Positions 8,919 to 60,706 of a stretch of DNA of 64,000 nucleotides are shown piece by piece. Position numbers and translations under genes: made by a program. The notes under the pieces are model-generated. The model ran no database searches. It worked only from the letters and a program-made list of their open reading frames with translations, and was not told where the DNA came from. The stretch spans positions 94,022 to 158,021 of IMG/VR virus record IMGVR_UViG_3300032291_003679; one strand, written 5' to 3'. The DNA is from a virus. The number at the start of each line of letters is the position of its first letter. The stretch's first letter is position 1.

Positions 8919-8919
8919 G

Positions 8920-8947
8920 CAATAGACCCTTCAAGTTGTGTCTATTG
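8920..8947 (-). promoter_or_regulatory. Hairpin presenting the ribosome-binding site of the polyprotein
   Basis: On the minus strand a perfect 8-bp stem (CAATAGAC at 8940-8947 pairing with GTCTATTG at 8920-8927) encloses a 12-nt loop that contains GAAGG. That Shine-Dalgarno-like element ends 9 nt before ATG 8918, so the stem lies between it and the start codon. It could tune translation of the protease gene relative to the portal. The pairing is visible; a regulatory role is inference. The rest of the 131-bp gap to the portal holds another inverted repeat (8997-9004 with 9036-9043, 8 bp, 31-nt loop) of unknown meaning. Confidence 0.4.
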
Positions 8948-40884: not shown

Positions 40885-41117
40885 GAAGTGAATTTGGTAA
40901 AAATCGCAAAGCTAGCCCTTTGGACTTTTTCCGCAAATCTACAGAATATGCAGAAAAATCAGTCGAGGATGCAAGATACAAAATATGCACAGAATGCCCT
41001 AGCTTCGTAGCAATATCTCGCCAGTGCGCAAAGTGTGGTTGCTTTATGCATTTAAAAACAAAACTTGCCCACGCTGAATGCCCAATTGGCAAGTGGGGCC
41101 CGGTTCTAACAGATTAA
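40881..41117 (+). CDS. Small zinc-ribbon protein
   Basis: 78 residues with two CxxC pairs, ICTECPSF (about 36-43) and CAKCGCFM (about 49-56), a following AECPIGKW, typical of a small zinc-binding protein family common in aquatic phages. Role unknown. Its ATG overlaps the upstream stop (ATGA), and its TAA interlocks with the stop of the convergent gene within TTAA 41114-41117. Confidence 0.75.
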   Translation: MRSEFGKNRKASPLDFFRKSTEYAEKSVEDARYKICTECPSFVAISRQCAKCGCFMHLKTKLAHAECPIGKWGPVLTD

Positions 41118-42175
41118 CTGTTTAGTTCGTACCAACCTTTTCCCCACAGGCTTTGCAAGCGGGTAAAGTATTTTTCATACATCAGGCCAACAGCGTCTAA
41201 ACCGTATCTGTCTTTTGCATACTTGCTAATTGAAGCCCTATCAAGAGACTTCACATCTTCTGCTGCATTGACAAACTCTTGAAGAGTGTGGCACCTAAAC
41301 CCGGTAACACCATCAATGACAGTTTCCGTAAAAGCTCCCCAGTCTGTAGAGATAACTGGAGAACCACAGGCCATGGCTTCTACAGCAACGGTTCCAAAAG
41401 GCTCAACATAGATAGTTGGAGTGAATGTCGCTATTGCCCCACCCATTAGTTTCGCGCGCTGTTCGGTTCCAACAACACCAACGTACTCTCCGTATTCAGG
41501 TGGAACGCCTTGACCGGCAATTACCAACCGCTTGCCTAGATGTTTGCAAACATCGACGGCAATTTGGTAACCCTTGCGCTCAATTAGGCGTCCAATGTAA
41601 AGATAGTAGTCGTCTGGTTCTTCTTGCAGCGGGAAGTTTTCAACCTCTATATAGCTCGGAATTACCGTGTCGTAGAACTTTCCGTCGAGAGCGTGAGGGT
41701 CAGTTACTTTTGAGCCATAGCAGGAGTGCATCCAAGCGTATGATTCAAAAACCTTGTATGGAGCAAATGAGCCACCGTAGCCAATTCCAAACTCTACGCT
41801 TAGTTCCTCGGGAAAAGCATCAGCGATGGGCTTAGAGGCGTAACCAGCAATAAGACAAATAAAGTCTTTATGTTCTAAGCGGTTTCTAATTCCGTAAATC
41901 ACATTGGCGTTGAAATTTTTCCAGTGAGGAAGATTCCAGTCGAAAGATGCAGCAGAATAGTGATTGTCTCCTACAGCCTTTAAACGCTGTTCTTCGCTAA
42001 TACATACAATGTGGTCATCGCACGGCGCTTCATTGAACTCGCCACCGTAGAGAAATACGGTATGCCCGAGGTTCTTCATCATGATGCAGAACTTACGAAC
42101 CTTTTCCGTGTAGGCGCAAGCCGTAAAATCTTCAGTTGTGTTTGTGTGAGGCAGGCTTACGACATGAAATCTCAT
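41114..42175 (-). CDS. Family 4-like glycosyltransferase
   Basis: 353 residues, GT-B fold. YLYIGRLIERKGYQIAVDVC (the start of the C-terminal donor-binding half), KRLVIAGQG, and EPFGTVAVEAMACGSPVIST, the E-x7-E motif of GT4 enzymes. Transfers a sugar from a nucleotide donor to an unknown acceptor. Last gene of the minus-strand modification block; its ATG lies directly before the stop of the upstream gene's frame. Confidence 0.88.
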   Translation of the reverse strand: MRFHVVSLPHTNTTEDFTACAYTEKVRKFCIMMKNLGHTVFLYGGEFNEAPCDDHIVCISEEQRLKAVGDNHYSAASFDWNLPHWKNFNANVIYGIRNRLEHKDFICLIAGYASKPIADAFPEELSVEFGIGYGGSFAPYKVFESYAWMHSCYGSKVTDPHALDGKFYDTVIPSYIEVENFPLQEEPDDYYLYIGRLIERKGYQIAVDVCKHLGKRLVIAGQGVPPEYGEYVGVVGTEQRAKLMGGAIATFTPTIYVEPFGTVAVEAMACGSPVISTDWGAFTETVIDGVTGFRCHTLQEFVNAAEDVKSLDRASISKYAKDRYGLDAVGLMYEKYFTRLQSLWGKGWYELNS

Positions 42176-42470: not shown

Positions 42471-43007
42471 CTAAATGTAAGACATGTAGTCACGGCCTTT
42501 TTCCGCAAAAAAAAGCTGAATGCTATAACGTCTGACGGGCGCTGCCGCAGAAATCATAGATACATGATGTGGGATTTGACCCTTGGCAACCACCGCAGTA
42601 TTGAACTCTGGAATATGGCCCTTCAGGTTTCCGTCTTCTAGATACATAAATAGACCACCCCAGTTTTTATCCCAAAACTCATTAAGATAAATAGAGACAT
42701 TGATTGGGGTGTAGTCTTCGTGCCAGCCGATTTGAGAATGGATAGGCATTGAAAAAAACATCGGGAACGGAATGTACAGATTCATAGTCTCTACTTCCGG
42801 AATAAATAAACCTATTTCCCGTCTGAGTTTTTCCTCAAACTGGGAAAGACTTGCCATCATTATCGAAGCAGAGCCAGCAACAATATCCTGATTCCACATC
42901 GTATTTTCTCTCCAGATATAATCATCTGCATTTTGTACGATGTATTCATGCATTTCGTTCATTAACTCAAAAGACAAAACGTTCTGGTGTTTTTCAACTG
43001 TTCCCAT
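42471..43007 (-). CDS. 2OG-Fe(II) oxygenase family protein
   Basis: 178 residues from ATG 43007 (GGAG five bases upstream; a TTG three bases earlier is too close). Double-stranded beta-helix oxygenase pattern: QIGWHEDYTPINVSIYLN (His-x-Asp iron ligands), WGGLFMYLEDG, and GQIPHHVSMIS with the second His, then VRRYSIQLFF with the 2-oxoglutarate Arg. Substrate unknown. One of three such enzymes in the block; overlaps the upstream gene by 14 bp. Confidence 0.8.
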   Translation of the reverse strand: MGTVEKHQNVLSFELMNEMHEYIVQNADDYIWRENTMWNQDIVAGSASIMMASLSQFEEKLRREIGLFIPEVETMNLYIPFPMFFSMPIHSQIGWHEDYTPINVSIYLNEFWDKNWGGLFMYLEDGNLKGHIPEFNTAVVAKGQIPHHVSMISAAAPVRRYSIQLFFAEKGRDYMSYI

Positions 43008-43677
43008 CAATGCTCCATATGTGTGGCTTTACGTGGCTCAAACGAATTGTAGTGTCAAAATGACACTCAATGCCAGCGCGTCTGGCTCTCATGAATAGTG
43101 CAGAATCTTCACTCGTATTGACTTCCGTTTTTTTTGTAATAGGGTTTATTTCTGTAGTATTAGCAAAATATGGAAATTCTATTTCCCCAAAGACGCCTCT
43201 TTTCATACAGCAAAAACCAAGACCGCTTGAATAAATTTTTACGTATTCTGGCAAAGAAGCAAGTTCATCGACATAAAAATGCTGAGGAACGGGGTCGTCC
43301 CAGTTGAGCGCATCATGACAAGTTTCTGTGGCGTCAGCGGCAAATTGTTTCATAACGCTTAAACGTCCATCAGGGCTAATCATGTAGGCACCAACAGTAA
43401 TTTGATGCGGTGAATTAATAATTTTACAAAAGTCTTCAACGGTCCAAAATATGTCGCTGTCTATCCACAAAAGCCTGTCGTGAGGTTCGCGTGACATTCG
43501 AAGACCCTCTACCATTAATTCTCTAAGTTGACCAACATGGGAACCAGAGTGATGACAGAGACCAACACTAATATTTGCACGAGCAGCGTACGCCATTGTT
43601 CGATGCAAGCTAACCACATACTGGGGAGTGAATGACTGCGCTGGCGTCATAATGATGACACGCTTAACATTACTCAT
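42994..43677 (-). CDS. GT-A glycosyltransferase-like protein
   Basis: 227 residues. VIIMTPAQSFTPQYVVSLHR opens a Rossmann-like GT-A fold, LLWIDSDIFWTVEDF has the DxD metal/nucleotide motif (about 71-73), and GLGFCCMKRGVFGEIEFPYF fits the acceptor side. Likely transfers a sugar; acceptor unknown. Part of the oxygenase/glycosyltransferase block. Confidence 0.75.
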   Translation of the reverse strand: MSNVKRVIIMTPAQSFTPQYVVSLHRTMAYAARANISVGLCHHSGSHVGQLRELMVEGLRMSREPHDRLLWIDSDIFWTVEDFCKIINSPHQITVGAYMISPDGRLSVMKQFAADATETCHDALNWDDPVPQHFYVDELASLPEYVKIYSSGLGFCCMKRGVFGEIEFPYFANTTEINPITKKTEVNTSEDSALFMRARRAGIECHFDTTIRLSHVKPHIWSIDGNS

Positions 43678-43687
43678 CGCCAGAAAC

Positions 43688-44407
43688 TTAAGCCTCGGGG
43701 GTTACAAATGAAGAGTCATCAAAAACGTTAACAACGGGCGTTTTAATGTTTTCATTTTGAATTGGAGTAAGCGAGCAGTTTATAAACTGACTAATAATCC
43801 ATTTATCGTTTGATAATGGAACCATTCCTTGATGTGGATATAGCCATGTCGTTGGAAAAATAACCACTTTGCCAATCTCTGCCTCGGTAATGAGGCCATG
43901 TTCTGGGAACGACGTCCCACCACCTTCTTTTACCGTATTGAGATAAACAATTACGGCAAGAATGCGCGCGGTGTTGGTGCCATCATCGATTGGGAACCAA
44001 GGCTGCGCATCGCAGTGTCTTCTGTAGAAGCCAACATTTCTTTCGTACCGTTGAATCCTAAAACCTGTGCAGTGAAGTCCGGGTGCGGACCACAGGTCCT
44101 GGTAATGCTCAATATAGTCAGCTACACAACTCCATACATCGTTATTGAATTCTTCACAGATGCTTGAGTAAATTCTGAAGTATTTAAGGTCTGGGGTGTA
44201 CTGCTCTGCATTCATAAACGAAGTATCCATGCAGTTTTTCATTAATGGGTTATACCCACCAATAGTTGGACCAAGTTCAAAAAGAGTGTTGAAATCCTCT
44301 GTTAAACACGAAACCAACTGAGCACATTTGTCTGCGTCCAAAGCATTCTTGTATTCAGCAATAGCAATGTCTTTGCCGAGCGGAAATGATGCATTTATCT
44401 GTCCCAT
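43688..44407 (-). CDS. Prolyl 4-hydroxylase-like 2OG-Fe(II) oxygenase
   Basis: 239 residues. GFYRRHCDAQPWFPIDDG (His-x-Asp), ILAVIVYLNTVKEGGGTSFPEHG (typical P4H/PHD strand with the conserved GGxTxF-like element), KVVIFPTTWLYPHQGM (second His) and the following Lys/Trp region match the collagen-type P4H branch. It may hydroxylate proline or another residue. Collagen-like fibres lie 3.5 kb away on the same strand. Confidence 0.83.
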   Translation of the reverse strand: MGQINASFPLGKDIAIAEYKNALDADKCAQLVSCLTEDFNTLFELGPTIGGYNPLMKNCMDTSFMNAEQYTPDLKYFRIYSSICEEFNNDVWSCVADYIEHYQDLWSAPGLHCTGFRIQRYERNVGFYRRHCDAQPWFPIDDGTNTARILAVIVYLNTVKEGGGTSFPEHGLITEAEIGKVVIFPTTWLYPHQGMVPLSNDKWIISQFINCSLTPIQNENIKTPVVNVFDDSSFVTPEA

Positions 44408-45180
44408 CTACGCTGTTCCCTTCTGTATTTACCTTTTCGTTTAAAACTAGGCACCCACGGACCGCCAAACCCTAAACCTTCGTGCGCATGAAATAAACCT
44501 TCATCCCCGAAAATTAATGAATTGGCATTGTCTTTACGTTTGAAAATAATCAGCTGGGCAATCGGTGTCCCCTGAGCAATGTGAAATGGCTTGTCTGTTA
44601 AGACGTTAAGAACTACATTGACCGTATGGTAATAATCAGTATTGACGACGCCTGCGACTACGTCAAATTCTGGTCTCGGATTGACAAGCGAAGAAGTAAT
44701 CATGACAGAATAGCCCTTGGCGGTCCTGACGTTCCAAGGAGACACAAGTTTTAAATAGTTTGCGCCTTGAACACTTTTATCACGACGCTCAGTAAAAGGA
44801 CATGCGCCAGTCTGATTGAAACCAAAAGGTTCTATTTTCCCAGCCCGTCCATTTGGGTCTGGTTGCGTTACGTTGAACTCAGCATCAAAATAATGACCGT
44901 CCAGAGATGGCCTAACGCGAATATCTGCCCACAAAGGAAGGGTTATTCCCGTTTCTGCTACATCCGAAACTCCAGGACAATATTTAAGATTCTTGTCTTC
45001 ATCAAGCCGGTGAGTCCACCATTCTTTAAAGTTTCTATTCAGAATTGGTCTAGTCACATCTGTAACAACCATGCCATTGCGCTCCGGCATAAAAAGAACT
45101 TCATTTGGTTTTAGTTTTGGAACGTCGCGAGGGCTATTGCCAGAAATAAAAGAAATACCTTTATCTTTTGAAGACTTCAT
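44395..45180 (-). CDS. Hypothetical protein with dUTPase-like segment, possibly DUF6065
   Basis: 261 residues from ATG 45180, chosen because AAAGGA precedes it. The C-terminal third (GVVNTDYYHTVNVVLNV, then FHIAQGTPIAQLIIFKR) resembles the jelly-roll core of trimeric dUTPases, but the catalytic motifs are not evident. From memory this resembles DUF6065, often next to tryptophan-halogenase genes; not verified. Overlaps the halogenase gene by 20 bp and the next oxygenase by 13 bp, so all three are coupled. Confidence 0.65.
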   Translation of the reverse strand: MKSSKDKGISFISGNSPRDVPKLKPNEVLFMPERNGMVVTDVTRPILNRNFKEWWTHRLDEDKNLKYCPGVSDVAETGITLPLWADIRVRPSLDGHYFDAEFNVTQPDPNGRAGKIEPFGFNQTGACPFTERRDKSVQGANYLKLVSPWNVRTAKGYSVMITSSLVNPRPEFDVVAGVVNTDYYHTVNVVLNVLTDKPFHIAQGTPIAQLIIFKRKDNANSLIFGDEGLFHAHEGLGFGGPWVPSFKRKGKYRREQRRWDR

Positions 45181-46651
45181 GATGTTTCCTTTCACTTCGG
45201 CTCTGCAGGAACGAATTCCTAAAATTGTCAAGCTCTTTCTTTGAAGAGTCTATCGTTCCGTATTCACTCAGCATACGTGCAGAAATGTCCTTACTTACAA
45301 GTCCTTGACCTTGGGCAACATGCCACAGGTGGGCCACCTGAAACAGTTCGTAGCCATTTGCTCCATATGGGTCATTCCGAGAAGGACTGCGTTCTTTCCA
45401 CAAAGCCAGCAATTCCTCAAGCATCGGCGGTTTTTCCATGTCCGCAGCGTCTCGCCAGAATTGGGTATCCCGCCTGTCGGAAACATAGTGCAAAGCAATC
45501 ATTGAAACAAGATTTTCATGAAAGTCATTCATTATTTCGTTGTATCTTTTTGGAGAAGCGGTATGCCACGGTTCATATGAGCCCAAAAAGGTACAAAGAA
45601 GACGAGCCTGTTGAATAGCGGTAGATATGGATGTTGCTTCCAGTGGTTCAATAAAGGAACTGGCCAAACCAACAGCAACACAGTTTTTGTGCCACTGCGT
45701 CTTTAAGTACCCTGAATCGTAATGAATAAACCGTGGTGACTCAATCGTATAGCCGGTTGCTTCTTGCAACTCGTTTATTACGCTTTCCTCGTCTATGTGT
45801 TTTGAAGAATATACATACCCGTTACCGCGACGTTCTTGTGTCGGTATTTCCCATATCCATCCTGCAGATGCTGCCCGAGCCCGTGTATATGGTCTGATTT
45901 CACCACTTGGGTCAGGTGGGGTTGGGAATGGCGATGCCGAATCAACTAAAAGGTATTTTGAATATGAAGACCATTCGGTGTTTCCTATTTCGCTCATTAG
46001 CACACGATAAAAACCACTTGCGTCAATCCAGAAATCAGCAAAGTGCTCGCCGTTTTGAAGTTCTACTGATTTAATAAATCCGTTTTCGGAATCAGTGTTA
46101 ACTTTCGTAACAATGTCATCCACAAAAGATATTCCACGGTTTTTGCACAAAGAATGAAAATACGAGTTTAATTTAAAAGTGTCAAAATGAAATTGGTTTG
46201 TCGATGAATGGGGGGACAAGCTGTCACTAATGTCGTTGCCGTTTTCGTCAACTTTAAAAGGGACAGGAATATAGTTTTCTATAAATCTAGGGTTTGTCAA
46301 AGAGTTGGTTAGTAGCTTCCCGTTTACGTTAATCCAGTCATACAAAGGAACTGTATCGTGATGAAATCCATACGAGTTTACGCTGTGGAAATATTGAGGA
46401 GTATGGGTCGACCAGCCCTCAAAATAAATCCCATATTTATGGGTTGCTCCTGCTTCATCAACCAACTCATCAATGTCAATATCGCACATCTCACAAAAAA
46501 GACGCCAATGTTCTGTTGAACCTTCACCGACACCAATAATTCCAAGTTTTGATGACTCAATGATTGTCACGTCAGATTTTGGTAATCGTTTTTTTATAAC
46601 GATTGCGGCTATCAACCCCGCAGTTCCACCGCCAACAATTGAAATTTTCAC
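45161..46651 (-). CDS. Flavin-dependent tryptophan halogenase-like protein
   Basis: 496 residues, GTG start. N-terminal FAD site ISIVGGGTAGLIAAIVI (GxGxxG type), GVGEGST with the family's EGST element (about 42-48), THKYGIYFEGW with a Lys at the position of the catalytic Lys, and WIWEIPTQ (about 266-273), the WxWxIP motif that blocks monooxygenase chemistry. The same family includes cyanophage-encoded halogenases. It would chlorinate or brominate a free or protein-bound indole/aromatic substrate using a partner flavin reductase, none of which is visible here. Confidence 0.88.
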   Translation of the reverse strand: MKISIVGGGTAGLIAAIVIKKRLPKSDVTIIESSKLGIIGVGEGSTEHWRLFCEMCDIDIDELVDEAGATHKYGIYFEGWSTHTPQYFHSVNSYGFHHDTVPLYDWINVNGKLLTNSLTNPRFIENYIPVPFKVDENGNDISDSLSPHSSTNQFHFDTFKLNSYFHSLCKNRGISFVDDIVTKVNTDSENGFIKSVELQNGEHFADFWIDASGFYRVLMSEIGNTEWSSYSKYLLVDSASPFPTPPDPSGEIRPYTRARAASAGWIWEIPTQERRGNGYVYSSKHIDEESVINELQEATGYTIESPRFIHYDSGYLKTQWHKNCVAVGLASSFIEPLEATSISTAIQQARLLCTFLGSYEPWHTASPKRYNEIMNDFHENLVSMIALHYVSDRRDTQFWRDAADMEKPPMLEELLALWKERSPSRNDPYGANGYELFQVAHLWHVAQGQGLVSKDISARMLSEYGTIDSSKKELDNFRNSFLQSRSERKHHEVFKR

Positions 46652-46652
46652 G

Positions 46653-47267
46653 TTACCTAAACCACGTTACAAAAGAATACTTGATGTCGTAAGAATTTTC
46701 TTTTATTGGAAGGGCGGCATGCTTGTAAAGATAGTTAGAAGGGAAAAGAACAAACGAGCCAGCTTGGCATGGAACAGTCAAATCCAAGTGTTCAAAGTAA
46801 AGTTCACCACCTTCGAAGTCGTCATTGAACCACCCAACCAAACTTAATTGACGCTGATTTTCAGGGTGGTAATCAATGTGTGGCCTATACTCTGCGCCGC
46901 TAGGGTATTTTAGAACCCTATAACCTTCATCCGCTTGCAGCTCAAGGTCGTAATCGTTACGGTATTGATAAACGCATGCATTGATTTTTTCAAAAGAATC
47001 CAACCATTTTTTGTGAAGGTCGAAAAGCCTGTGATGCTCCTGAACGGAATCAAGCATTATAGGACTTAGTTCCATCTGGTTGGATTGCCTGTAATCAGAA
47101 ATGATGCCGCTTCCTGTTGGGGAAACTTCCCACATTAGGTATGGCCAATCCTGTGCGGATTCTTTTTCAATTTCATCAATAATGCCAGTGGGGTCAAATA
47201 TATTTTTATGAAGAACAACACCTGGGGCAAGTATTTCTTTTTCATATTCAAAACTGTTTTCAGTCAT
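46653..47267 (-). CDS. 2OG-Fe(II) oxygenase (PKHD-type)
   Basis: 204 residues. YRVLKYPSGAEYRPHIDYHP (His-x-Asp at about 133-135), LSLVGWFNDDFEGGELYFEH, SFVLFPSNYLYKHAALPIKE (second His) and KYSFVTWF are the usual iron- and 2-oxoglutarate-binding elements. Lies immediately upstream of the halogenase gene (1 bp apart). Third oxygenase of the block. Confidence 0.85.
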   Translation of the reverse strand: MTENSFEYEKEILAPGVVLHKNIFDPTGIIDEIEKESAQDWPYLMWEVSPTGSGIISDYRQSNQMELSPIMLDSVQEHHRLFDLHKKWLDSFEKINACVYQYRNDYDLELQADEGYRVLKYPSGAEYRPHIDYHPENQRQLSLVGWFNDDFEGGELYFEHLDLTVPCQAGSFVLFPSNYLYKHAALPIKENSYDIKYSFVTWFR

Positions 47268-47712
47268 TATTTTCTCGTTCTATTACTTTAAACTCATTTA
47301 TCCAGAGATACTGCTCGTCATCTTTCCACAATACGAAAGATAATTCCGATTCAGAACCCATTCTTACATTAAACTCAGCATAATGTCGTTCAAGAACTGA
47401 CGGAATCAACATTAAGTGCCCGTTTGGTTCTTGAATTATATGACGAAATAAAGTAAAACGAAAGCCAGCAGTTAAGTCAACAAATTCGTTAACATAACTA
47501 AACTTAAAATATTCTTTAGAAATAGGCTGAGGTGGCGTCAACTGACAAAAATGCTCAATTGGGATTGACAAAGGGATAGGTTTAGACCTGTCGAACTTCA
47601 AACTCTTTGTCCGCTCGTTGTCCCCAACTAAAACAGGGACAAGATGCAGCCGAGAGAGCTTCTTGGCCTCTTCTAAATAGCTCTCATCTGGGCAATAGAT
47701 AACTCTGTCCAT
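47260..47712 (-). CDS. Hypothetical protein
   Basis: 150 residues; overlaps the downstream oxygenase start by 8 bp. Contains SYVNEFVDLTAGFRFTLFRH, VLERHYAEFNVRMG and ELSFVLWKDDEQYLWI. Mixed alpha/beta; no family recognised. Co-transcribed with the modification enzymes. Confidence 0.55.
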   Translation of the reverse strand: MDRVIYCPDESYLEEAKKLSRLHLVPVLVGDNERTKSLKFDRSKPIPLSIPIEHFCQLTPPQPISKEYFKFSYVNEFVDLTAGFRFTLFRHIIQEPNGHLMLIPSVLERHYAEFNVRMGSESELSFVLWKDDEQYLWINEFKVIERENND

Positions 47713-47968: not shown

Positions 47969-49645
47969 CTATGAATTAATTATAATTTTTGTGCTTGACT
48001 GCAAAGCCTGTGTCAGTCCAGAAGTATCAGTAATGATAATTATACCGCCTTCTCTGCCCTGGGTTCCGGCATTGCCAGCCGCTCCGGCATTGCCAGCCGC
48101 TCCATTATTCCCAGCGTTTCCTGGATTTCCTGCAAGACCCTTTGGTCCGTTTGTTCCAGGATTACCAGCGTTGCCCGCTACACCAGCATTGCCAGCTGCT
48201 CCAGCGGTGCCTCCAGCAATATGATGCTGGTGAGCTGTGTGAGATGCGTTGGAGTTTGCGTAATGGAAAGTATTTGGGTTGTGACCACTTACATAATTAT
48301 ATGAATGATGGTGCCCTAATCCAATTAAAAAGTGGGCAACGTTTGCTGGCACAGAACCACGTGGCCACACCCTGTTTGCTGCAGCGCCAGTATAATGGAA
48401 GGCGTGAGAGCTCCCGCGGTGCGAATGTCGAGGGAAGTGCCCAGAGTTTGATTCGTTGGCAGGGCGACCTGGCGTGCCTCCAAATGTTCTCATGTGTCCA
48501 TAACCGTTGAGTGCCCCATCGAATGCGTGCGCCACGGCGTGGTTTGGGTTCGAACCAGCAGGGTGGCCATAGTTGTGAAAACCCGAGTCGTGAGCATGAA
48601 CATACGTGTCACCGCTACCACCAGCATTTCCAGCAGCCCCAGGGTTTGCTACACCAGGATTGCCAGCCGTGGCTCCAGTGCCATTAGTTCCATCAGCACC
48701 TGCGTTACCAGCATTAGCCCCAGTGCCTGCGCTCCCTGCATTTCCAGCAACTCCATTTGTACCAGATTGCCCGACGCTGATAATTGTTCCAGAACCAGAA
48801 ATTGTTTTTGCAACAATCAAAACAATCGGACCGCCTACACCTCCTACGCCGTTGGAACCAGCATTTCCAGCATTTCCAGCATTTCCCGCAGTCCCACCAG
48901 CGCCGTTGGTGCCAGCATTGCCTGGGTTGCCTGCAGCGCCGGCTGAACCGCCATGTCCTGTGCCGTTAGTGCCCGCATTGCCATTGTTGGCAACATGATG
49001 AGGGCTGTGCCAGTTGTAGTAAACACCAGAACCGCCATGAGCATAGTGCCAGTGACCAGGCAACCCAGTAGTTCCACCTGCTGTTGCGCCACTTCCTCCG
49101 TGACCACCAGTCCCTGCGCTTCCTGCTGCGCCTGCCCCCCCAGCCGTCGCTCCAGTTCCTGCGTTTCCTGCTGCTCCTACTCCCCCTGAACCTCCGGAAG
49201 TCGCACCAGTACCATCTGCTCCTTTATCTCCACCACTGAACTGGCGAACTATTCCTGCATTGTCTACAAAATATCCGGTAATCGCAGTTTCTAAATTGTG
49301 AAGAACACTCAGCGGCAAAGGGTTACTGGAAGTCTGGCTGATGCTGTATGTTGCAACCGAAGAAGCCTGGCCTGCGACAGTTCCGGTGTTTATGGGTGTT
49401 GTGTAACCCACAGAAGCACCTATTGTGCCATTGTTTACGAGTTCTCCCTTAACAAAAACACGGAATCCGTTAGTAATAAAAGTACAGCTGCTGTTAATGG
49501 TCAACGAGTTGTAGTACATGTCTCGCGTGATTACGGTAGGAGTACCAGTGTTGGACACAACTACGTTCCCATCGCTACCGTTACCATAAACGGAGTCATT
49601 ACCTATTCTTTGTTCGTATACCTTATTAAATTTTTCAATATACAT
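47969..49645 (-). CDS. Glycine-rich, histidine-rich fibre protein
   Basis: 558 residues. N-terminal 110 residues (SVYGNGSDGNVVV, VITRDMYYNSLTINSS, NGFRVFVKGEL) match the N-terminus of the upstream gene. Then long Gly-Ala-Gly/Asn tracts (AGNAGTGATAGGAG and similar), split by a His-rich region at about 320-480 (HAHDSGFHNYGH; HSHRGSSHAFHY; GLGHHHSYNYVSGH; HTAHQHHIAGG). Glycine-rich helical shafts with His clusters at the tip are used by phage adhesins to bind metal and stabilise trimers. Adhesin role inferred. Confidence 0.8.
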   Translation of the reverse strand: MYIEKFNKVYEQRIGNDSVYGNGSDGNVVVSNTGTPTVITRDMYYNSLTINSSCTFITNGFRVFVKGELVNNGTIGASVGYTTPINTGTVAGQASSVATYSISQTSSNPLPLSVLHNLETAITGYFVDNAGIVRQFSGGDKGADGTGATSGGSGGVGAAGNAGTGATAGGAGAAGSAGTGGHGGSGATAGGTTGLPGHWHYAHGGSGVYYNWHSPHHVANNGNAGTNGTGHGGSAGAAGNPGNAGTNGAGGTAGNAGNAGNAGSNGVGGVGGPIVLIVAKTISGSGTIISVGQSGTNGVAGNAGSAGTGANAGNAGADGTNGTGATAGNPGVANPGAAGNAGGSGDTYVHAHDSGFHNYGHPAGSNPNHAVAHAFDGALNGYGHMRTFGGTPGRPANESNSGHFPRHSHRGSSHAFHYTGAAANRVWPRGSVPANVAHFLIGLGHHHSYNYVSGHNPNTFHYANSNASHTAHQHHIAGGTAGAAGNAGVAGNAGNPGTNGPKGLAGNPGNAGNNGAAGNAGAAGNAGTQGREGGIIIITDTSGLTQALQSSTKIIINS

Positions 49646-49647
49646 TG

Positions 49648-50367
49648 TTACACCAACTGCATGTAGTTGACGGTTCCAGGATTTTGGCCAGTTACGTTAG
49701 TCGTGACAGATGCAGGCAACGCCACAGCACTTGATATTAGTAGGACAACTCCACCTCCAGCAGGAGCTGTGGCTGGAGCTTGTATGTAAGCAGTGCCGCT
49801 TACAGGGCCAGCTATATATCTAGCCGCAAGGATTACGACTCCACCACCAGCCTGCCCGCTTCCGCCCGCTCCGCCTCTTAAAAATGTCGGCCCTCCAGAA
49901 GCAGTGACAGAATAGCCTTGAATTGCTTGGCGAGGAATGCTCCAATATTGTGTTCCGCCAAGAGCAGCCGTCGGTACTGTCGCCGTGAACCCAGTTGCAG
50001 AACCGCCAAGAGAATGAGTCACGGCAGTGCTCACTGCTCCTCCTTGTTGAATTGAGCCAGCAGTTGAAAAACCCGTAGTAAAGCCAATCGTTGCGTCGTT
50101 TCCAGCAAAGGTTAAAATATTTTTAACAAATATTCTGTATCCGTTTGGTGCTAAGCGAACGCTTGTATTTAGCGTCAGATTGTTAAAAAACATATCTCTT
50201 GTCATTGTGTAGACACTCGCTGATGGAGCCATGCTCAAAACAGTCGTGGACCCATCAAGAACAGCATCGCCATCCATGCCTGTTCCGTAAACAGGGTCGG
50301 CGGAATCAAGAAACTGCGCCATAGAATCTGGCACGTTCATTCTTGTGATGCTGGTAAATCTTCTCAT
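49648..50367 (-). CDS. Fibre protein, paralogue of the downstream fibre
   Basis: 239 residues. N-terminal PVYGTGMDGDAVL, VYTMTRDMFFNNLTLNTS and NGYRIFVKNIL align with the next gene's N-terminus. The C-terminal part (FLRGGAGGSGQAGGGVVILA) is short and Gly-rich rather than His-rich. Probably an attachment or shaft component; 2-bp gap to its paralogue. Confidence 0.75.
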   Translation of the reverse strand: MRRFTSITRMNVPDSMAQFLDSADPVYGTGMDGDAVLDGSTTVLSMAPSASVYTMTRDMFFNNLTLNTSVRLAPNGYRIFVKNILTFAGNDATIGFTTGFSTAGSIQQGGAVSTAVTHSLGGSATGFTATVPTAALGGTQYWSIPRQAIQGYSVTASGGPTFLRGGAGGSGQAGGGVVILAARYIAGPVSGTAYIQAPATAPAGGGVVLLISSAVALPASVTTNVTGQNPGTVNYMQLV

Positions 50368-50369
50368 AG

Positions 50370-50708
50370 TTATGGAATCGTTTTTACACCAGTAATCAAA
50401 ATGTTGACTACATCGTCCGAAGATGCTGATGCCCAGAGTTTGTCTCCGGCAGGAACAAATATATCCGAGGCAATCATCATTGTTTCATTTGCAGCAAGAG
50501 CCATTGAGTTGAATATTCTGTTTGATGAAGTTGTTGAAGTATCTGCCGAGCCAGTTATTGAAAAGTGCACAGTGACAGAAGAAGAATGGGTATTACACAA
50601 AACCAACTGCGTGATAACAAGCGTTTCTCCGGTGCCTACTTGATATAAAACTTCTTCAGTTGCATCTATTGGAGTGAAAACGATTCGTGCGACTTCGACT
50701 GTTGCCAT
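50370..50708 (-). CDS. Hypothetical tail protein
   Basis: 112 residues; beta-rich (LVITQLVLCNTHSSSVTVHF, MALAANETMMIASDIFVPAG, VNILITGVK). Matches small, immunoglobulin/jelly-roll-like proteins often found among phage fibres, but no family is firmly recognised. Two-bp gap to the downstream fibre gene. Confidence 0.6.
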   Translation of the reverse strand: MATVEVARIVFTPIDATEEVLYQVGTGETLVITQLVLCNTHSSSVTVHFSITGSADTSTTSSNRIFNSMALAANETMMIASDIFVPAGDKLWASASSDDVVNILITGVKTIP

Positions 50709-50716
50709 GATTTTAC

Positions 50717-54484
<3,768 letters not shown>

Positions 54485-54710: not shown

Positions 54711-56021
54711 CTAACCTGTTACTACGATTGTGTAATCGTTTGCACCAATTGATGCACCGTTGAGGACAACGGAAACAGTGTTTCCATTTACGCGAGTTAC
54801 ATCACCAAAAACAGTTGCATTATTGGCGGCAACTTCATAAATCTGAACAATAACATCAGTTGTTCCAAAGTTGTGAGTCACTGTTGTGGTTGATGTTGTT
54901 CCCGATGAAGCAGCACAGCCTTGCTTTGCAATTCTTGCAAGAACAGGAGTACTTGTTGTCAGACCAGAAGCAGATGTTTCTGCAAGATTTGTACGAGCGG
55001 TAGCGGCTGTTGAGGCGCCTGTACCACCGTCTACAACTGCAACATCTGTGCCGTTCCAAACACCAGTAGTGATTGTTCCGAGAGTCGTAATTGTGTTTTG
55101 ACCAGCGTACGTGGAAGCAATGTCGATAGCGTTAGCCGAGACAGAAATACGGTCAGCTGTGCCAACAGCGTTGACTGTTGCGCCGTCTTTTGTAAGACCG
55201 TCACCTGCAATTACTGCTCCAGCACCAGAAAACTGAACCCAGTTCATTGCATCGGTACCAACAGTAATTGGACCGTTGCTTGAAACTACGAAGCCAGAAT
55301 CTGCGTTTACAGTTCCTTCCTCAACGAAAGTAAAAGTTCCACCAGACACTGTTCCTGTATCTGCAGTGCCGTTTGCGTCAGTTGCGCGGACGGCTGGGCC
55401 AGAAGACTGAACAACGTAGATACCGTTTTGTGATGCTGTCCCTTGGTTCTTAACAAGAACGCGGTCACCAGCAACAAGGGTTACTGTGGTGTCGATTGTG
55501 TCGCCGGCCTCAAGTTCGGTCGAAAGGTTGACTGCGGCAGTAGTAGCGGCACGAACTGACTGCTTAACATCAAGACCCTGACGGGCTGCGTCTACATAAC
55601 CCTTGGTAGCGGCGTGGGCAGGGTCAGTAGGGGTAGCAACCTTGATGTTGCCGCTTGCGTCCCTTATGACCAGCTTGCTTGCCGTAGCCTCTGAAGTTGC
55701 ATCAGCTAGCTTGCTGAAGTCGGAAGCAGAAAGTAGACCAGCGCTTGCGGAAGTTGCAAGATTTGGCGTGATGGTTATTGAACCGTTTGATTCGTTGATA
55801 GTGAGAGAGGTTGATTGGCTACCGGTAGATGTAACACCGGAAATCATCTTTCGCCATGCTGATGCCGTGGCGTCCCACACCTTGATGACGCCTTCACCGC
55901 TATGGAAAAACATTCGGCCGTCGAAGTTGCCAGTATTCGGGTCTGTACCAAGCACTTCAAAAGTGGCATTAACCAGCTGATTCTGGTTCAGGTCAATATT
56001 TGTAAGAAATTTTTGTGCCAT
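54711..56021 (-). CDS. Tail fibre protein
   Basis: 436 residues. N-terminal NIDLNQNQLVNATFEVLG, the usual fibre-start sequence, followed by KVWDATASAWRKM and a repeated beta shaft. The middle module (LDVKQSVRAATTAAVNLS, RVLVKNQGTASQNGIYVVQS) is shared with the 50717-54454 fibre. The C-terminus (VTHNFGTTDVIVQIYEVAAN) is a tip-like fold of many phage fibres. Confidence 0.82.
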   Translation of the reverse strand: MAQKFLTNIDLNQNQLVNATFEVLGTDPNTGNFDGRMFFHSGEGVIKVWDATASAWRKMISGVTSTGSQSTSLTINESNGSITITPNLATSASAGLLSASDFSKLADATSEATASKLVIRDASGNIKVATPTDPAHAATKGYVDAARQGLDVKQSVRAATTAAVNLSTELEAGDTIDTTVTLVAGDRVLVKNQGTASQNGIYVVQSSGPAVRATDANGTADTGTVSGGTFTFVEEGTVNADSGFVVSSNGPITVGTDAMNWVQFSGAGAVIAGDGLTKDGATVNAVGTADRISVSANAIDIASTYAGQNTITTLGTITTGVWNGTDVAVVDGGTGASTAATARTNLAETSASGLTTSTPVLARIAKQGCAASSGTTSTTTVTHNFGTTDVIVQIYEVAANNATVFGDVTRVNGNTVSVVLNGASIGANDYTIVVTG

Positions 56022-56732: not shown

Positions 56733-56884
56733 TGCGAAGAATGCCTCCAGAGTAAACAGGTTCACAAAGATTGTAGATTACGCAGGGCCTTTGTTGGCCC
56801 AAGTATTTAGTGCACTTTTTCAATTATTCGTTTATCTCTTTATTGATGTCGACGAATTTCTTTAATAGTCTGAAAGTGATTTTT

Positions 56885-57976
56885 ATGAAAAAACCGCAAA
56901 AGCCAACTATCGCTTTTTTGACCCACGACTGGGCATGGGGTACCGAACCACTGCAGCCAAATGGGTGTTGCTGGTATCGGTGCAAACTACCTTCAGACCA
57001 GCTAAACAAGCGTGGCTGGTTTACTGCTGTCGGCTTCCCTGGGTTTAATGAAAAGCGCGGCTTCGGAATGCTCGTAGACGATGGGCGAGCAGTCCACGGG
57101 TGGGACATAATTGTATTAAAACTGTTGATGCAGAAAGAGATACTTGAGTCAATACCAAAAGCTCAAGCGATGGGGCAAAAAATAGTTGTTGATATTGACG
57201 ACTGGTTTGATGGCCTTTCTAAGTCAAATAGGGCATTTGAAGCTACAGACCCTAAAAACAACCCAGACTCTAATCGAGAGATTTATGCTCAAATAATTAT
57301 GGCTGCAGATGCGATAATTACCTCAACGCCTTTTCTTTTTGAGTACTACGGAAAAAAGCGCGACAACGTGTTTATGGTTAGAAACGGAATAGATACTGAC
57401 CGGTGGAAAAAAAAGCAATTTAAGACAAATAGAAAATTGAGGATTGGATGGGTTGGGGCTACGCACTGGCGCTCAAACGACCTTGAGCAACTTTCTTCAT
57501 TTATGGGGAAATACGTAAAACAAAAAAATCTTATGTTCCATCACTCTGGACATAATCCAAATGCTCCTGATGCACATGAACTACTCGGAATACAGAAAGA
57601 ACTTTCACAAGTTACAGGAATGGCTCCCATACTTGACTACCCTCAACTTTTGACACCAATTGATATTGGGATAATCCCGCTAAACAACATTGAATTCAAT
57701 CACGCTAAATCTTTTATTAAGGGATTGGAATACGCAGCAGCCGGTGTCCCCTTTGTGTCTTCATATTCTCCCGAATATCAATATTTAGCGGATAATGGTA
57801 TAGGTCGAGTTGCGAAGAATGAAAAAGAATGGATTTATCATCTGGATGAATTGCTTAATCCTCAAAAACGCCTAGATGAAATAAATGAAAATTACTCACT
57901 TCTGCACAAATTCTCAATGGATGCTCGTGGTGACGACTGGGATGCAACGATGCGGTTCATTAAGGACAATGTTTAG
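56885..57976 (+). CDS. Glycosyltransferase (GT-B, family 4-like)
   Basis: 363 residues from ATG 56885, preferred over a start at 56810 as GAAAGTGA stands upstream and the family sequence begins here. IAFLTHDWAWGTEPLQPNG, KIVVDIDDWFDGL (DxDD), IITSTPFLFEYYGK, VRNGIDTDRW, LRIGWVGATHWRSNDLEQL and FIKGLEYAAAGVPFVSSYSP fit GT-B glycosyltransferases; the last has the E/A-rich donor motif. First of five coupled plus-strand genes. Confidence 0.85.
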   Translation: MKKPQKPTIAFLTHDWAWGTEPLQPNGCCWYRCKLPSDQLNKRGWFTAVGFPGFNEKRGFGMLVDDGRAVHGWDIIVLKLLMQKEILESIPKAQAMGQKIVVDIDDWFDGLSKSNRAFEATDPKNNPDSNREIYAQIIMAADAIITSTPFLFEYYGKKRDNVFMVRNGIDTDRWKKKQFKTNRKLRIGWVGATHWRSNDLEQLSSFMGKYVKQKNLMFHHSGHNPNAPDAHELLGIQKELSQVTGMAPILDYPQLLTPIDIGIIPLNNIEFNHAKSFIKGLEYAAAGVPFVSSYSPEYQYLADNGIGRVAKNEKEWIYHLDELLNPQKRLDEINENYSLLHKFSMDARGDDWDATMRFIKDNV

Positions 57977-57978
57977 TC

Positions 57979-58632
57979 ATGCAAGACATTCAGTGGACTT
58001 TTGGAATAGTCACAGGATTTGAGGACTATCAAAGACTTAATGACATACTCGATTCAATAAGAGGACTCTCGATTCCAGAATACGAAATTATTCTCATTGG
58101 TGGGGAAAATAATGGCTGCACTCCATCTGCCGAGGATGTTCGAATAATTGATTTTGATGAATCTCAAAAACCTAGATGGATAACGAGAAAAAAGAATATT
58201 CTTGTTAATGAAGCAAAATACGAAAATGTTGTGTTAATGCACGATTATCACGTCTTTGATAAAGACTGGTACTTGAACTTCAAATCTTTTGGTACAGACT
58301 GGGAAATATGCTCATGTCCTCAGTATTTAATTACTGGGGACAGAAACCCCATGGACTGGTCGCTATGGGACAAGCCAAATCATGGCAGGGCATGGTCGCT
58401 TGATTACGACGACTGGTCTCAGACACAGTACATGTATATATCTGGTGGATTTTTCATTGTCAAAAAACATGTACTAATAGAGGAACCGTTAGACGAATCG
58501 CGAGGCTGGAACGAAGAAGAAGACGTTGAATGGTCTATGCGGGTACGCAACAAATACGTGATGAAGTGCAATGGTAAAAGCATTGTTAGACACAACAAAT
58601 GGCATAGACATGCAGGTCCGGAGCCTCAATGA
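57979..58632 (+). CDS. GT2-like glycosyltransferase
   Basis: 217 residues, 2-bp gap after the previous gene. WTFGIVTGFEDYQRLNDILD, VVLMHDYHVFDKDWYLNF (the HDYH in place of the DxD), ISGGFFIVKKHVL and RGWNEEEDVEWSMRVRNKY (the ED acceptor-side motif) are typical of GT2-type enzymes. Its stop overlaps the next ATG. Acceptor unknown. Confidence 0.8.
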   Translation: MQDIQWTFGIVTGFEDYQRLNDILDSIRGLSIPEYEIILIGGENNGCTPSAEDVRIIDFDESQKPRWITRKKNILVNEAKYENVVLMHDYHVFDKDWYLNFKSFGTDWEICSCPQYLITGDRNPMDWSLWDKPNHGRAWSLDYDDWSQTQYMYISGGFFIVKKHVLIEEPLDESRGWNEEEDVEWSMRVRNKYVMKCNGKSIVRHNKWHRHAGPEPQ

Positions 58633-60002
58633 AAAGTCAGAAACTCGTAATATTCGACCTAGACGGTGTGCTAATAGATTCGCGTGATGTTCATTACGAA
58701 TCACTTAATCAGGCGCTTTCTCTTGTTGGTCAAGAATTTGTAATATCTCGCAGCGAGCACTTATCTACTTTTGATGGGCTTGGGACAACCAAGAAGCTGG
58801 AAATGCTCAGCTCGATGAAAGGACTCCCAAGGGATAAACATTCAGAGATATGGGAAGATAAACAAAAAGCGACAATAGACATACTTGGTCTACTTCCAAA
58901 AAACGCGAATGCAATAGACATTATGCAGACGCTAAAAGCAGATGGTTGGAAAATTGCTGTTGCCAGCAATGCTATACGCGAAACAGTAATCACCGCGCTT
59001 AACGCAATTGGCGTTCTACATATGGTGAGTCACATTATGAGCAATGAAGACGTAAAACATCATAAGCCTCATCCAGAAATGTACTGGCAGTGCATGATTA
59101 ACTGTAGCGCAACTCCCTCTTCGACGATAATTGTTGAAGATTCACACATAGGTAGAGAGGGCGCAACTGCATCCGGCGCGCATCTCTTTGCAATAAAAGA
59201 CTCGTATAACCTAGATAAAGAGAGACTATTACGCATGGCATCAGAAATAAACGCAAGCCAAAGAACAAACGTCGCATGGAAAAACGAAAAAATGAACGTT
59301 CTGATTCCAATGGCAGGAGCTGGTTCTAGGTTCTCTCAAGCTGGATACACGTTTCCGAAACCACTTATTGAGGTTCACGGAAAGCCAATGATTCAGATGG
59401 TTGTAGAAAACCTCAACATCGACGCTCGTTTTATATTTTTGGTGCAAAAAGAACATTACGAAAAATACAACTTAAAGCAAGTTTTGAGCATTATTAAACC
59501 GGGTTGTGAAATAGTCATTGTTGACGGGATGACAGAAGGTGCTGCCTGCACAACGCTGCTTGCTTCCGGATTGATAGACAATGAAAACCCTCTCCTTATG
59601 GCAAACTCAGACCAGTTGGTTGAATGGAACAGCAACGAATGTCTTTATGCTTTTGATGCGGACGAAATAGACGGCGGAATCCTAACCTTTAAGGCAACCC
59701 ACCCCAAATGGTCGTACGCCAAAATGGGCGAAGATGGCTTTGTTGAAGAAGTCGCTGAGAAAAACCCAATCTCAGACAACGCCACAGTAGGCATCTACTA
59801 CTGGAAGCATGGTTCTGATTATGTTAAATACGCAAATCAGATGATTGAAAAAGACATAAGAACGAATAACGAGTTCTATGTCTGTCCGGTATTCAACGAG
59901 GCCATTCAAGATGGCAAAAAGATACGCATTAAAGAAGTTTCCGAAATGTGGGGAATCGGAACACCCGAAGACCTTAACTACTACCTGGAGAATTGCAAAT
60001 GA
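58629..60002 (+). CDS. HAD phosphatase-nucleotidyltransferase fusion
   Basis: 457 residues. Residues 1-220: HAD hydrolase, LVIFDLDGVLIDSRDVHYES (DxDG), VASNAIRETVI, KPHPEMYW, TIIVEDSHIGREGA. Residues about 222-457: sugar-1-phosphate nucleotidyltransferase, LIPMAGAGSRFSQAGYTFPK (GxGxR and the Lys), LMANSDQLVEW, NPISDNATVGIYYW, SEMWGIGTPEDL. Together these would dephosphorylate and activate a sugar or polyol phosphate. The fusion is less usual than separate enzymes. Both stop/start junctions overlap (ATGA). Confidence 0.85.
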   Translation: MKSQKLVIFDLDGVLIDSRDVHYESLNQALSLVGQEFVISRSEHLSTFDGLGTTKKLEMLSSMKGLPRDKHSEIWEDKQKATIDILGLLPKNANAIDIMQTLKADGWKIAVASNAIRETVITALNAIGVLHMVSHIMSNEDVKHHKPHPEMYWQCMINCSATPSSTIIVEDSHIGREGATASGAHLFAIKDSYNLDKERLLRMASEINASQRTNVAWKNEKMNVLIPMAGAGSRFSQAGYTFPKPLIEVHGKPMIQMVVENLNIDARFIFLVQKEHYEKYNLKQVLSIIKPGCEIVIVDGMTEGAACTTLLASGLIDNENPLLMANSDQLVEWNSNECLYAFDADEIDGGILTFKATHPKWSYAKMGEDGFVEEVAEKNPISDNATVGIYYWKHGSDYVKYANQMIEKDIRTNNEFYVCPVFNEAIQDGKKIRIKEVSEMWGIGTPEDLNYYLENCK

Positions 60003-60706
60003 GCAAAAACAAAAATGACTACCTTGCGATGCAAAACTCGTATTATGACGAGTATGCAAGCCAGTGGTCGCTAGATTTTAGAGACCCCGTCGTTGGCTCT
60101 TATGATGCTCACAACAACTGGCCCGACTATGACGCAGTTTTGTTTAAAGATTTTGATACAAACGGCTTAGTTGCTCTTGAGTATGGCTGTGGTCCAGGAA
60201 GAAATCTTGTGAAGTTTTCTAACCGTTTTGCAAGAATCGACGGAGTCGATATATCCGACGTAAACATTAATAAAGCAAAGATAAACCTTGAGCACAACGG
60301 CATCTCTGGTTCAAACCTTTATGTCACGAGTGGTGACAATTTGTCAATGATAGAAGACGACACCTATGATGTTGTTTTCGCCGTTATTTGCTTTCAGCAC
60401 ATCTGCTCTCACGAAATTAGATTCAGCATTCTCAAAGACATATATCGAGTCTTGAAGCCAGGCGGAAAGCTCTGCTTCCAGATGGGTTATGGAGGAAAAG
60501 AAGGAATCCCTACTGCTGGATACTTTGATGACGTATTTGATGCAGCAAGTACCAATGGCCACGCCGATGTAAGCATCACAGATGAGTCAGATATACAAAA
60601 AGACCTAACCGAGAAGATTGGGTATATCAATTACAAGTCCGACATCAGAGAAACTGGACCTGGGGACAATCATAGAAACTGGATATGGGTTCAGGTTGAA
60701 AAATGA
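59999..60706 (+). CDS. SAM-dependent methyltransferase
   Basis: 235 residues from ATG 59999, overlapping the previous stop; a TTG at 59993 is a weaker alternative. VALEYGCGPGRNLVKFS (motif I), RIDGVDISDVNINKAKINLE (motif II), YDVVFAVICFQHI, RVLKPGGKLCFQMGYG: a class I methyltransferase. Likely methylates a sugar or lipid intermediate of this operon. Ends in an ATGA overlap with the next gene. Confidence 0.85.
   Translation: MSKNKNDYLAMQNSYYDEYASQWSLDFRDPVVGSYDAHNNWPDYDAVLFKDFDTNGLVALEYGCGPGRNLVKFSNRFARIDGVDISDVNINKAKINLEHNGISGSNLYVTSGDNLSMIEDDTYDVVFAVICFQHICSHEIRFSILKDIYRVLKPGGKLCFQMGYGGKEGIPTAGYFDDVFDAASTNGHADVSITDESDIQKDLTEKIGYINYKSDIRETGPGDNHRNWIWVQVEK

What the first reader, a model, noticed from the sequence alone, without database searches (positions are those of the whole stretch)
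42471..47267. Tryptophan halogenase with three 2OG oxygenases and a dUTPase-like companion
A flavin-dependent halogenase with its WIWEIP motif is packed with three distinct iron oxygenases and a DUF6065-like protein in overlapping genes. Phage halogenases are known from cyanophages, but here the whole set lies beside fibre genes. It might modify side chains of fibres or synthesise a halogenated metabolite.
Basis: partly seen in the sequence, partly recalled or inferred. Interest (0 to 1): 0.7.

Follow-up and report, generated by a model that had tools for sequence, protein, structure and literature searches.

The report
Halogenase cassette tied to phage adhesin
This phage carries a halogen-adding enzyme and oxygenases in a mobile gene block that, in every related virus that could be checked, travels with an unusual histidine- and glycine-rich fibre protein, which suggests that some phages chemically modify the protein with which they grip their host.

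Summary
The comparative evidence points upstream. In IMG/VR, loci found through the neighbouring short fibre gene (49648-50367), independently of the halogenase, carry a His/Gly-rich putative adhesin (47969-49645 here), the halogenase and the dUTPase-like gene: 51 of 51 dereplicated loci with enough flank have both enzymes' genes, and 48 of 51 a 2OG oxygenase. Of 20 close relatives found by terminase, the same 3 have all of these and 17 have none. Gene order varies, and two contigs hold two whole copies. Halogenase divergence follows the fibre genes (rho 0.68-0.69, p 0.0005), not terminase, portal or sheath (p 0.09-0.39). The block is a cassette swapped with the receptor-binding region. Most likely its enzymes modify the adhesin. 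Protein-bound tryptophan of the adhesin cannot be the general target, because 4 of 68 adhesins have none; Tyr, His or Asn are likelier. Substrate, products and host are unproven. The dUTPase-like protein lacks the dUTPase catalytic Asp and is probably not a dUTPase.

The parts
54711..56021 (-). Fibre/decoration-like gene at the start of the fibre locus; outside the cassette and present in relatives that lack it
   Evidence: phrog_2647 1e-38, phrog_30390 2e-42; homologues in cassette-free relatives G036 and G045
50717..54454 (-). Collagen-repeat tail fibre with phage collar domain (1245 aa); neighbour, not always near the cassette
   Evidence: PF01391 1e-76, PF07484 7e-20; no long collagen repeat within reach in many cassette loci
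50370..50708 (-). Small conserved protein (112 aa) ahead of the fibre pair
   Evidence: Same position in many cassette loci
49648..50367 (-). Short conserved fibre protein F (239 aa), constant partner of the adhesin
   Evidence: 45-76% identical among cassettes; N-terminal paralogue of the adhesin; no match in GenBank phages
47969..49645 (-). Putative adhesin ADH (558 aa): conserved N-terminal domain, Gly-rich repeats, hypervariable His/Asn/aromatic-rich insert, conserved Gly-rich C-terminus
   Evidence: AF2 confident at both ends, not in the insert
47260..47712 (-). Small protein of unknown fold (150 aa), usual cassette member
   Evidence: In 41 of 51 dereplicated loci; no Pfam, PHROG or NCBIfam family
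46653..47267 (-). 2OG-Fe(II) oxygenase OX3
   Evidence: PF13640 5e-13; HxD 46/46, second His 45/46, Lys 43/46
45161..46651 (-). Flavin-dependent halogenase HAL (496 aa, GTG start)
   Evidence: PF04820 6e-100; GxGxxG, catalytic Lys72 and Glu338 all 60/60
44395..45231 (-). dUTPase-fold, DUF6065-like protein DUT (likely ATG start at 45180)
   Evidence: AF2 pLDDT 87, Foldseek to dUTPases E 4e-5; dUTPase catalytic Asp replaced by His or Asn in 49 of 52; in 51/51 loci
43688..44407 (-). 2OG-Fe(II) oxygenase OX2, present in a subset of cassettes
   Evidence: PF13640 1.9e-9; HxD/H/K conserved; presence tracks Asn content of the adhesin
42994..43677 (-).
   Evidence: phrog_34859 1.3e-10, phrog_1574 1.6e-26; found only in the closest loci L002-L004
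42471..43010 (-). 2OG-Fe(II) oxygenase OX1, variable accessory
   Evidence: PF13640 3.6e-7; only in L002-L004
42176..42508 (-). Small putative membrane protein, conserved near many cassettes
   Evidence: Conserved at 2e-54 to 8e-31 in many loci
41114..42175 (-). GT4 glycosyltransferase
   Evidence: PF00534 1e-18, phrog_3408 9e-85; also kept at this edge in a cassette-free relative

Best explanation
The genes form a mobile adhesin-maturation cassette. F and ADH are receptor-binding fibre components; ADH shows a hypervariable insert, rich in His, Asn, Gly and aromatic residues, between Gly-rich repeats. During late infection the halogenase (FADH2, O2 and halide) and the 2OG oxygenases (Fe(II), 2OG and O2) post-translationally halogenate and hydroxylate side chains of that insert; the catalytically dead dUTPase-fold protein is a carrier, chaperone or specificity partner. 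The altered surface would tune receptor binding or stability. Shown: gene content, intact catalytic motifs, obligate linkage, co-absence, and co-inheritance as a cassette apart from the phage core. Inferred: that ADH is on the virion and binds the receptor, that ADH is the substrate, which residues are changed (Tyr or His for the halogenase and Asn or Pro for the oxygenases are my guesses), and the role of DUT.
For: (1) 51/51 dereplicated F loci with at least 6 kb downstream have HAL and DUT, and 48/51 a 2OG gene (from the F-seeded scans 45 and 56). (2) Co-absence: of 20 relatives found by terminase, HAL, F/ADH and DUT are all in the same 3 (G002, G003, G033) and in none of the other 17. (3) Linkage survives rearrangement: enzymes downstream, upstream or inverted, oxygenase after DUT, and two full cassettes in tandem in L214/L216. 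(4) Mantel tests over 16 genomes: HAL with F 0.69, ADH 0.68, OX3 0.61, DUT 0.66 (all p 0.0005); with TerL 0.26 (p 0.09), portal 0.14 (p 0.19), sheath 0.04 (p 0.39). (5) Catalytic residues intact. (6) Adhesins with OX2 hold about twice the Asn (11.2 vs 5.9%); phylogenetic regression p 1e-5 at fitted lambda, 0.03 under pure Brownian motion. (7) A relative with 85% terminase identity has, in the same slot, other His-rich fibres and a 2OG gene but no HAL or DUT. (8) Precedent for peptide and protein Trp halogenation by such enzymes: ChlH, PMC12518702.
Against: No product, virion proteomics or host is known. Two cyanophages and a pelagiphage with related halogenases (about 33-36% identical) have no match to this adhesin in their whole genomes, so the enzyme family has other uses. 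OX2 changes state only 4 times on the halogenase tree, and the independent-pairs test is not significant. Adhesin virion location rests on gene position and composition; the AF2 model is poor in the insert and has no PDB match. 2OG genes also occur without the cassette.
Confidence: 0.58

Rival explanations
1. The enzymes modify the host receptor or another surface molecule rather than the adhesin, for example to block superinfection. They travel with the adhesin because both are specific for the same receptor.
For: Explains cassette swapping, co-absence and co-inheritance with ADH equally well. Glycosyltransferases and other sugar-type genes surround the cassette.
Against: Does not explain why Asn content of ADH tracks OX2 or why the adhesin is so rich in oxidisable His/Tyr/Asn. 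The enzymes carry no obvious export signal (my reading of the sequences, not a tool result).
Confidence: 0.14
2. A biosynthetic cluster making a halogenated, hydroxylated small molecule (auxiliary metabolism), placed beside fibres by chance or by late expression.
For: Phage halogenases are usually described as auxiliary metabolic genes (PMC10452541). The characterised viral halogenase VirX1 takes many small aromatics (PMC8407142).
Against: 51/51 linkage to one fibre type and co-absence within one phage lineage; no scaffold-building enzymes in the conserved core; divergence follows fibre genes, not the core.
Confidence: 0.15
3. Synteny by descent only: neighbouring genes inherited together in a conserved late region with no shared function.
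For: All members are late-region genes of related phages; many contigs are near duplicates.
Against: Core genes are conserved while the cassette is replaced as a unit (TerL 97% but HAL 52%, OX3 34%, DUT 35%); linkage survives reordering and inversion and occurs in lineages with 44-48% TerL identity.
Confidence: 0.06
4. The His-rich insert is a metal-binding fibre (like T4-type HxH fibres) and the enzymes act on a small ligand or glycan displayed with it rather than on side chains.
For: 16% His in the region; an alternative HxH-type fibre set occupies the same slot in G036; HxH fibres bind iron (PMC11705849).
Against: Insert pattern is irregular rather than HxH arrays; no conserved ligand-making enzymes beyond the two oxidative families.
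Confidence: 0.07

Closest known systems
Viral flavin-dependent halogenases (cyanophages; VirX1 of cyanophage Syn10)
   Same: Same Pfam family with intact Lys/Glu; S-H38, P-SSM2 and HTVC008M homologues found; in HTVC008M the halogenase abuts a 2OG-type dioxygenase gene
   Different: About 33-36% identical, no match to the His-rich adhesin in those genomes, no fixed partner genes described
BrvH / Xanthomonas-type bacterial halogenases (PDB 6y1w, 6frl, 9luq)
   Same: Among the best sequence matches in solved structures
   Different: Bacterial; natural substrates not settled as far as I know
Peptide-modifying halogenases in RiPP pathways (ChlH, SrpI)
   Same: Shows that this enzyme class can halogenate peptide and protein Trp (PMC12518702, PMC10858898)
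   Different: Those act on small precursor peptides; here the presumed substrate is a large phage fibre
T2/S16/PP01 gp38 adhesins
   Same: Hypervariable segments between Gly-rich motifs at the fibre tip (PMC12892980)
   Different: No sequence match to any gp38 structure; insert is His-rich; enzymes attached
Nereis jaw protein Nvjp-1
   Same: His- and Gly-rich protein in a halogenated material (PMC13120676)
   Different: Animal structural protein; analogy only

Membership tests
Flavin-dependent halogenase (PF04820) | GxGxxG FAD motif | tested here: met
   60/60 homologues
Flavin-dependent halogenase (PF04820) | WxWxIP motif | tested here: met
   WIWEIP in window; W 60/60, second W 54/60 (F in 6), I 58/60, P 60/60
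Flavin-dependent halogenase (PF04820) | Catalytic Lys and Glu (PrnA K79, E346; numbering from own knowledge) | tested here: met
   K72 and E338, 60/60 each
Flavin-dependent halogenase (PF04820) | Halogenating activity | not testable with these tools
   needs enzyme assay
Free-tryptophan halogenase (PrnA/RebH/SttH type) | Trp-pocket HPF segment and C-terminal substrate lid | tested here: inconclusive
   HPF of SttH aligns to HSV here and alignments stop before the C-terminus; V/I/L at that position in 60/60; no structural docking done
2OG-Fe(II) oxygenase (PF13640) | HxD...H iron triad and Lys/Arg for 2OG | tested here: met
   OX3 and OX2 conserved across homologues; OX1 passes the Pfam cut-off and shows HED, PHH, RY by reading
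dUTPase | dUTPase fold | tested here: met
   Foldseek E 4e-5, PF00692 over cut-off
dUTPase | Catalytic Asp of motif 3 | tested here: not met
   N in window; H or N in 49 of 52
DUF6065 (PF19541) | Score over gathering cut-off | tested here: not met
   13.2 bits against 26.6
gp38-type polyglycine adhesin | Gly-rich motifs flanking hypervariable receptor loops | tested here: met
   sequence architecture
gp38-type polyglycine adhesin | Sequence or fold homology to gp38 | tested here: not met
   no gp38 hit by profile or by Foldseek on a poor model
gp38-type polyglycine adhesin | Located on fibre tip, binds receptor | not testable with these tools
   needs virion structure or binding assay

The most novel reading that the evidence does not exclude
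Phages use a transferable cassette to install halogen and hydroxyl groups on a hypervariable, His/Tyr/Asn-rich adhesin, extending receptor-binding chemistry beyond the standard amino acids, with the cassette swapped between phages like a host-range module.
Probability: 0.45. Interest if true: 0.92.

Novelty: categorically new. Interest (0 to 1): 0.78.

Why it matters
Halogenases are common in aquatic phages, but the papers found here treat them as auxiliary metabolic genes with unsettled substrates. A strict partner gives a concrete candidate substrate and makes the question testable in a single proteomics experiment. If phages tailor their adhesins chemically, sequence-based prediction of host range would miss a whole layer, and new peptide- or protein-halogenating enzymes would be available in large numbers.

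Tried and rejected
(a) Collagen-repeat fibre as the hydroxylase substrate: not consistently near the cassette. (b) Tryptophan in ADH as a universal target: absent in 4/68, and absent from the insert in 32/68. (c) The NP dipeptide as an oxygenase motif: strong raw correlation with oxygenase number (rho 0.75), but OX2 changes only 4 times on the tree and NP is not significant after phylogenetic correction; only total Asn (up) and Trp (down) keep an association, among 8 measures tested. (d) dUTPase function: catalytic residue lost. (e) Direct search with DUT as a single sequence found nothing. (f) Adhesin model: no PDB match. (g) Host: the genome-contig scan gave only weak hits in MAGs; terminase and portal are about 42-44% identical to actinophages, which is not enough to name a host. 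(i) A first run of the co-inheritance script failed on an empty sequence and was repeated.

Full report
WHAT IS THERE. The window is the last 64 kb of a 158,021-base viral contig. It is a myovirus: tail sheath, portal and large terminase are recognisable. The interval 42471-47267 on the minus strand holds, in transcription order, a 2OG-Fe(II) oxygenase (OX3), a flavin-dependent halogenase (HAL), a dUTPase-fold protein (DUT), a second 2OG oxygenase (OX2), a glycosyltransferase-like gene and a third 2OG oxygenase (OX1). Directly upstream lie a small gene (47260-47712), a 558-aa Gly/His-rich protein (ADH, 47969-49645), a 239-aa fibre-like protein (F, 49648-50367) whose N-terminus is homologous to that of ADH, a small protein, and a collagen-repeat fibre with a collar domain.

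ENZYMES ARE INTACT, THE dUTPase IS NOT. Across 60 homologues the halogenase keeps the FAD motif, catalytic Lys and catalytic Glu without exception; OX3 and OX2 keep the iron triad and the 2OG-binding Lys with few exceptions. DUT has a well-predicted dUTPase-like fold (pLDDT 87; Foldseek 4e-5), but the catalytic Asp of dUTPases is His or Asn in 49 of 52 sequences. It is more likely a binding or scaffolding protein. Among solved structures the halogenase is closer to Xanthomonas/BrvH-type enzymes than to PrnA/RebH, and the alignments end before the C-terminus.

THE LINK. A search with the halogenase returned 80 loci, most with the same neighbours. To avoid circularity I searched with the fibre gene F instead. 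After dereplication, 51 F loci had at least 6 kb held downstream; all 51 contain HAL and DUT, 48 contain a recognised 2OG oxygenase and 41 the small protein. Beside F lies a Gly-rich ADH, nearly always with a His-rich region: 16% His over about 210 residues on average; a few (L189, L190, L207) are less His-rich. The three loci without a recognised 2OG gene belong to one subtype; in one of them (L011) a protein that reads like a methyltransferase stands in the OX3 position (my reading; no Pfam hit). The core is therefore F, ADH, HAL and DUT, with oxygenases as near-constant accessories.

NOT JUST SHARED DESCENT. Gene order is not fixed: enzymes may follow the adhesin, precede it, lie in opposite orientation, or have the oxygenase after DUT, and contigs L214 and L216 carry two complete cassettes in tandem. 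Starting from terminase, I chose 20 large records with 82-97% identical terminase. HAL is in three of them, F/ADH in the same three, and DUT in the same three; the other 17 have none of these. Two of the three were already known as cassette carriers and some records are incomplete, so this is supporting evidence rather than a full census. In one cassette-free relative (G036) the same slot, between the collagen fibre and the GT4 gene, holds three collar-type fibres with HxH repeats and one 2OG gene instead.

CO-INHERITANCE. For 16 genomes I compared pairwise identities. HAL divergence follows F (0.69), ADH (0.68), DUT (0.66) and OX3 (0.61), all p 0.0005 by Mantel permutation, but not terminase (0.26, p 0.09), portal (0.14, p 0.19) or sheath (0.04, p 0.39). 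DUT also correlates with terminase (0.42, p 0.01). Against the window, G002 has terminase 97% and portal 90% but HAL 52%, OX3 34%, DUT 35%; G014 has terminase 48% yet also HAL 52%. The cassette moves independently of the core, as expected of a host-range module.

WHAT IT PROBABLY DOES. The simplest reading is that the enzymes mature the adhesin. ADH recalls T2/S16/PP01 gp38, where hypervariable receptor loops project from Gly-rich segments (PMC12892980), although no sequence or fold homology was found. Halogenases of this class can act on protein-bound Trp (ChlH, PMC12518702), but Trp is absent from four whole adhesins and from the insert in 32 of 68, whereas Tyr is present in all adhesins. 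The halogenated, His- and Gly-rich jaw proteins of Nereis are a loose analogy (PMC13120676). For the oxygenases there is a hint: cassettes with OX2 encode adhesins with about twice the Asn in the insert; this survives phylogenetic regression (p 1e-5 at fitted lambda, 0.03 under strict Brownian motion) but rests on only four changes of OX2 and is one of eight measures tested. I treat it as exploratory.

RIVALS. Modification of the host receptor would explain the same linkage and is a strong rival. A small-molecule pathway is the usual label for phage halogenases (PMC10452541) but fits the obligate fibre link poorly. Related halogenases in two cyanophages and a pelagiphage occur without this adhesin, so the enzyme family has more than one use. 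In HTVC008M the halogenase still abuts a dioxygenase gene, and some contigs (L073, L079) carry four tandem halogenase-family genes among several oxygenases next to three tandem Gly-rich fibre genes, which again suggests a fibre connection.

LIMITS. No host, no virion proteomics and no biochemistry. Contigs are metagenomic and partly redundant; only the best 80 loci per scan were seen. Profiles for the enzymes were built from the same loci. The literature check covered open-access papers only; no paper found there describes this cassette.

Noticed in passing
L073:9986-16235, L079:9986-16259: Four tandem halogenase-family genes with several 2OG oxygenases and DUT homologues, directly downstream of three tandem Gly-rich fibre genes.
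   Followed up: partly
L214, L216: Two complete F-ADH-enzyme cassettes in tandem on one contig.
   Followed up: partly
L394, L395 (G045, G038): Close relatives without the halogenase cassette carry clusters of 7-10 PF13640 2OG oxygenases near tail fibre genes.
   Followed up: partly
L397:3198-5767: Three collar-type fibres rich in HxH motifs (possible metal binding) replace the cassette in the same slot.
   Followed up: partly
window 42471-43010; L082:5392-6024 and 8434-8925: The 2OG oxygenase OX1 matches PHROG 274, labelled DNA endonuclease V, and S-H38 has two genes so labelled close to its halogenase; the label may be wrong for these proteins.
   Followed up: no
L011:9296-9973: A protein that reads like a methyltransferase occupies the position of OX3 in one cassette subtype.
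   Followed up: no
contig positions 49272-53415 (L088): Genes that read like a dTDP-rhamnose pathway and ThyX, suggesting the phage makes its own sugar nucleotides; not searched against families.
   Followed up: no
contig positions 58548-68984 and 85003-92175 (L088-L090): Two giant open reading frames of 3479 and 2391 aa, unidentified.
   Followed up: no
window 56810-61977: Sugar-type gene block (glycosyltransferase, HAD-nucleotidyltransferase fusion, methyltransferase) conserved next to some cassettes and also in a cassette-free relative.
   Followed up: partly
window 17770-18909: PAPS reductase-like gene in the structural region (phrog_2302).
   Followed up: no
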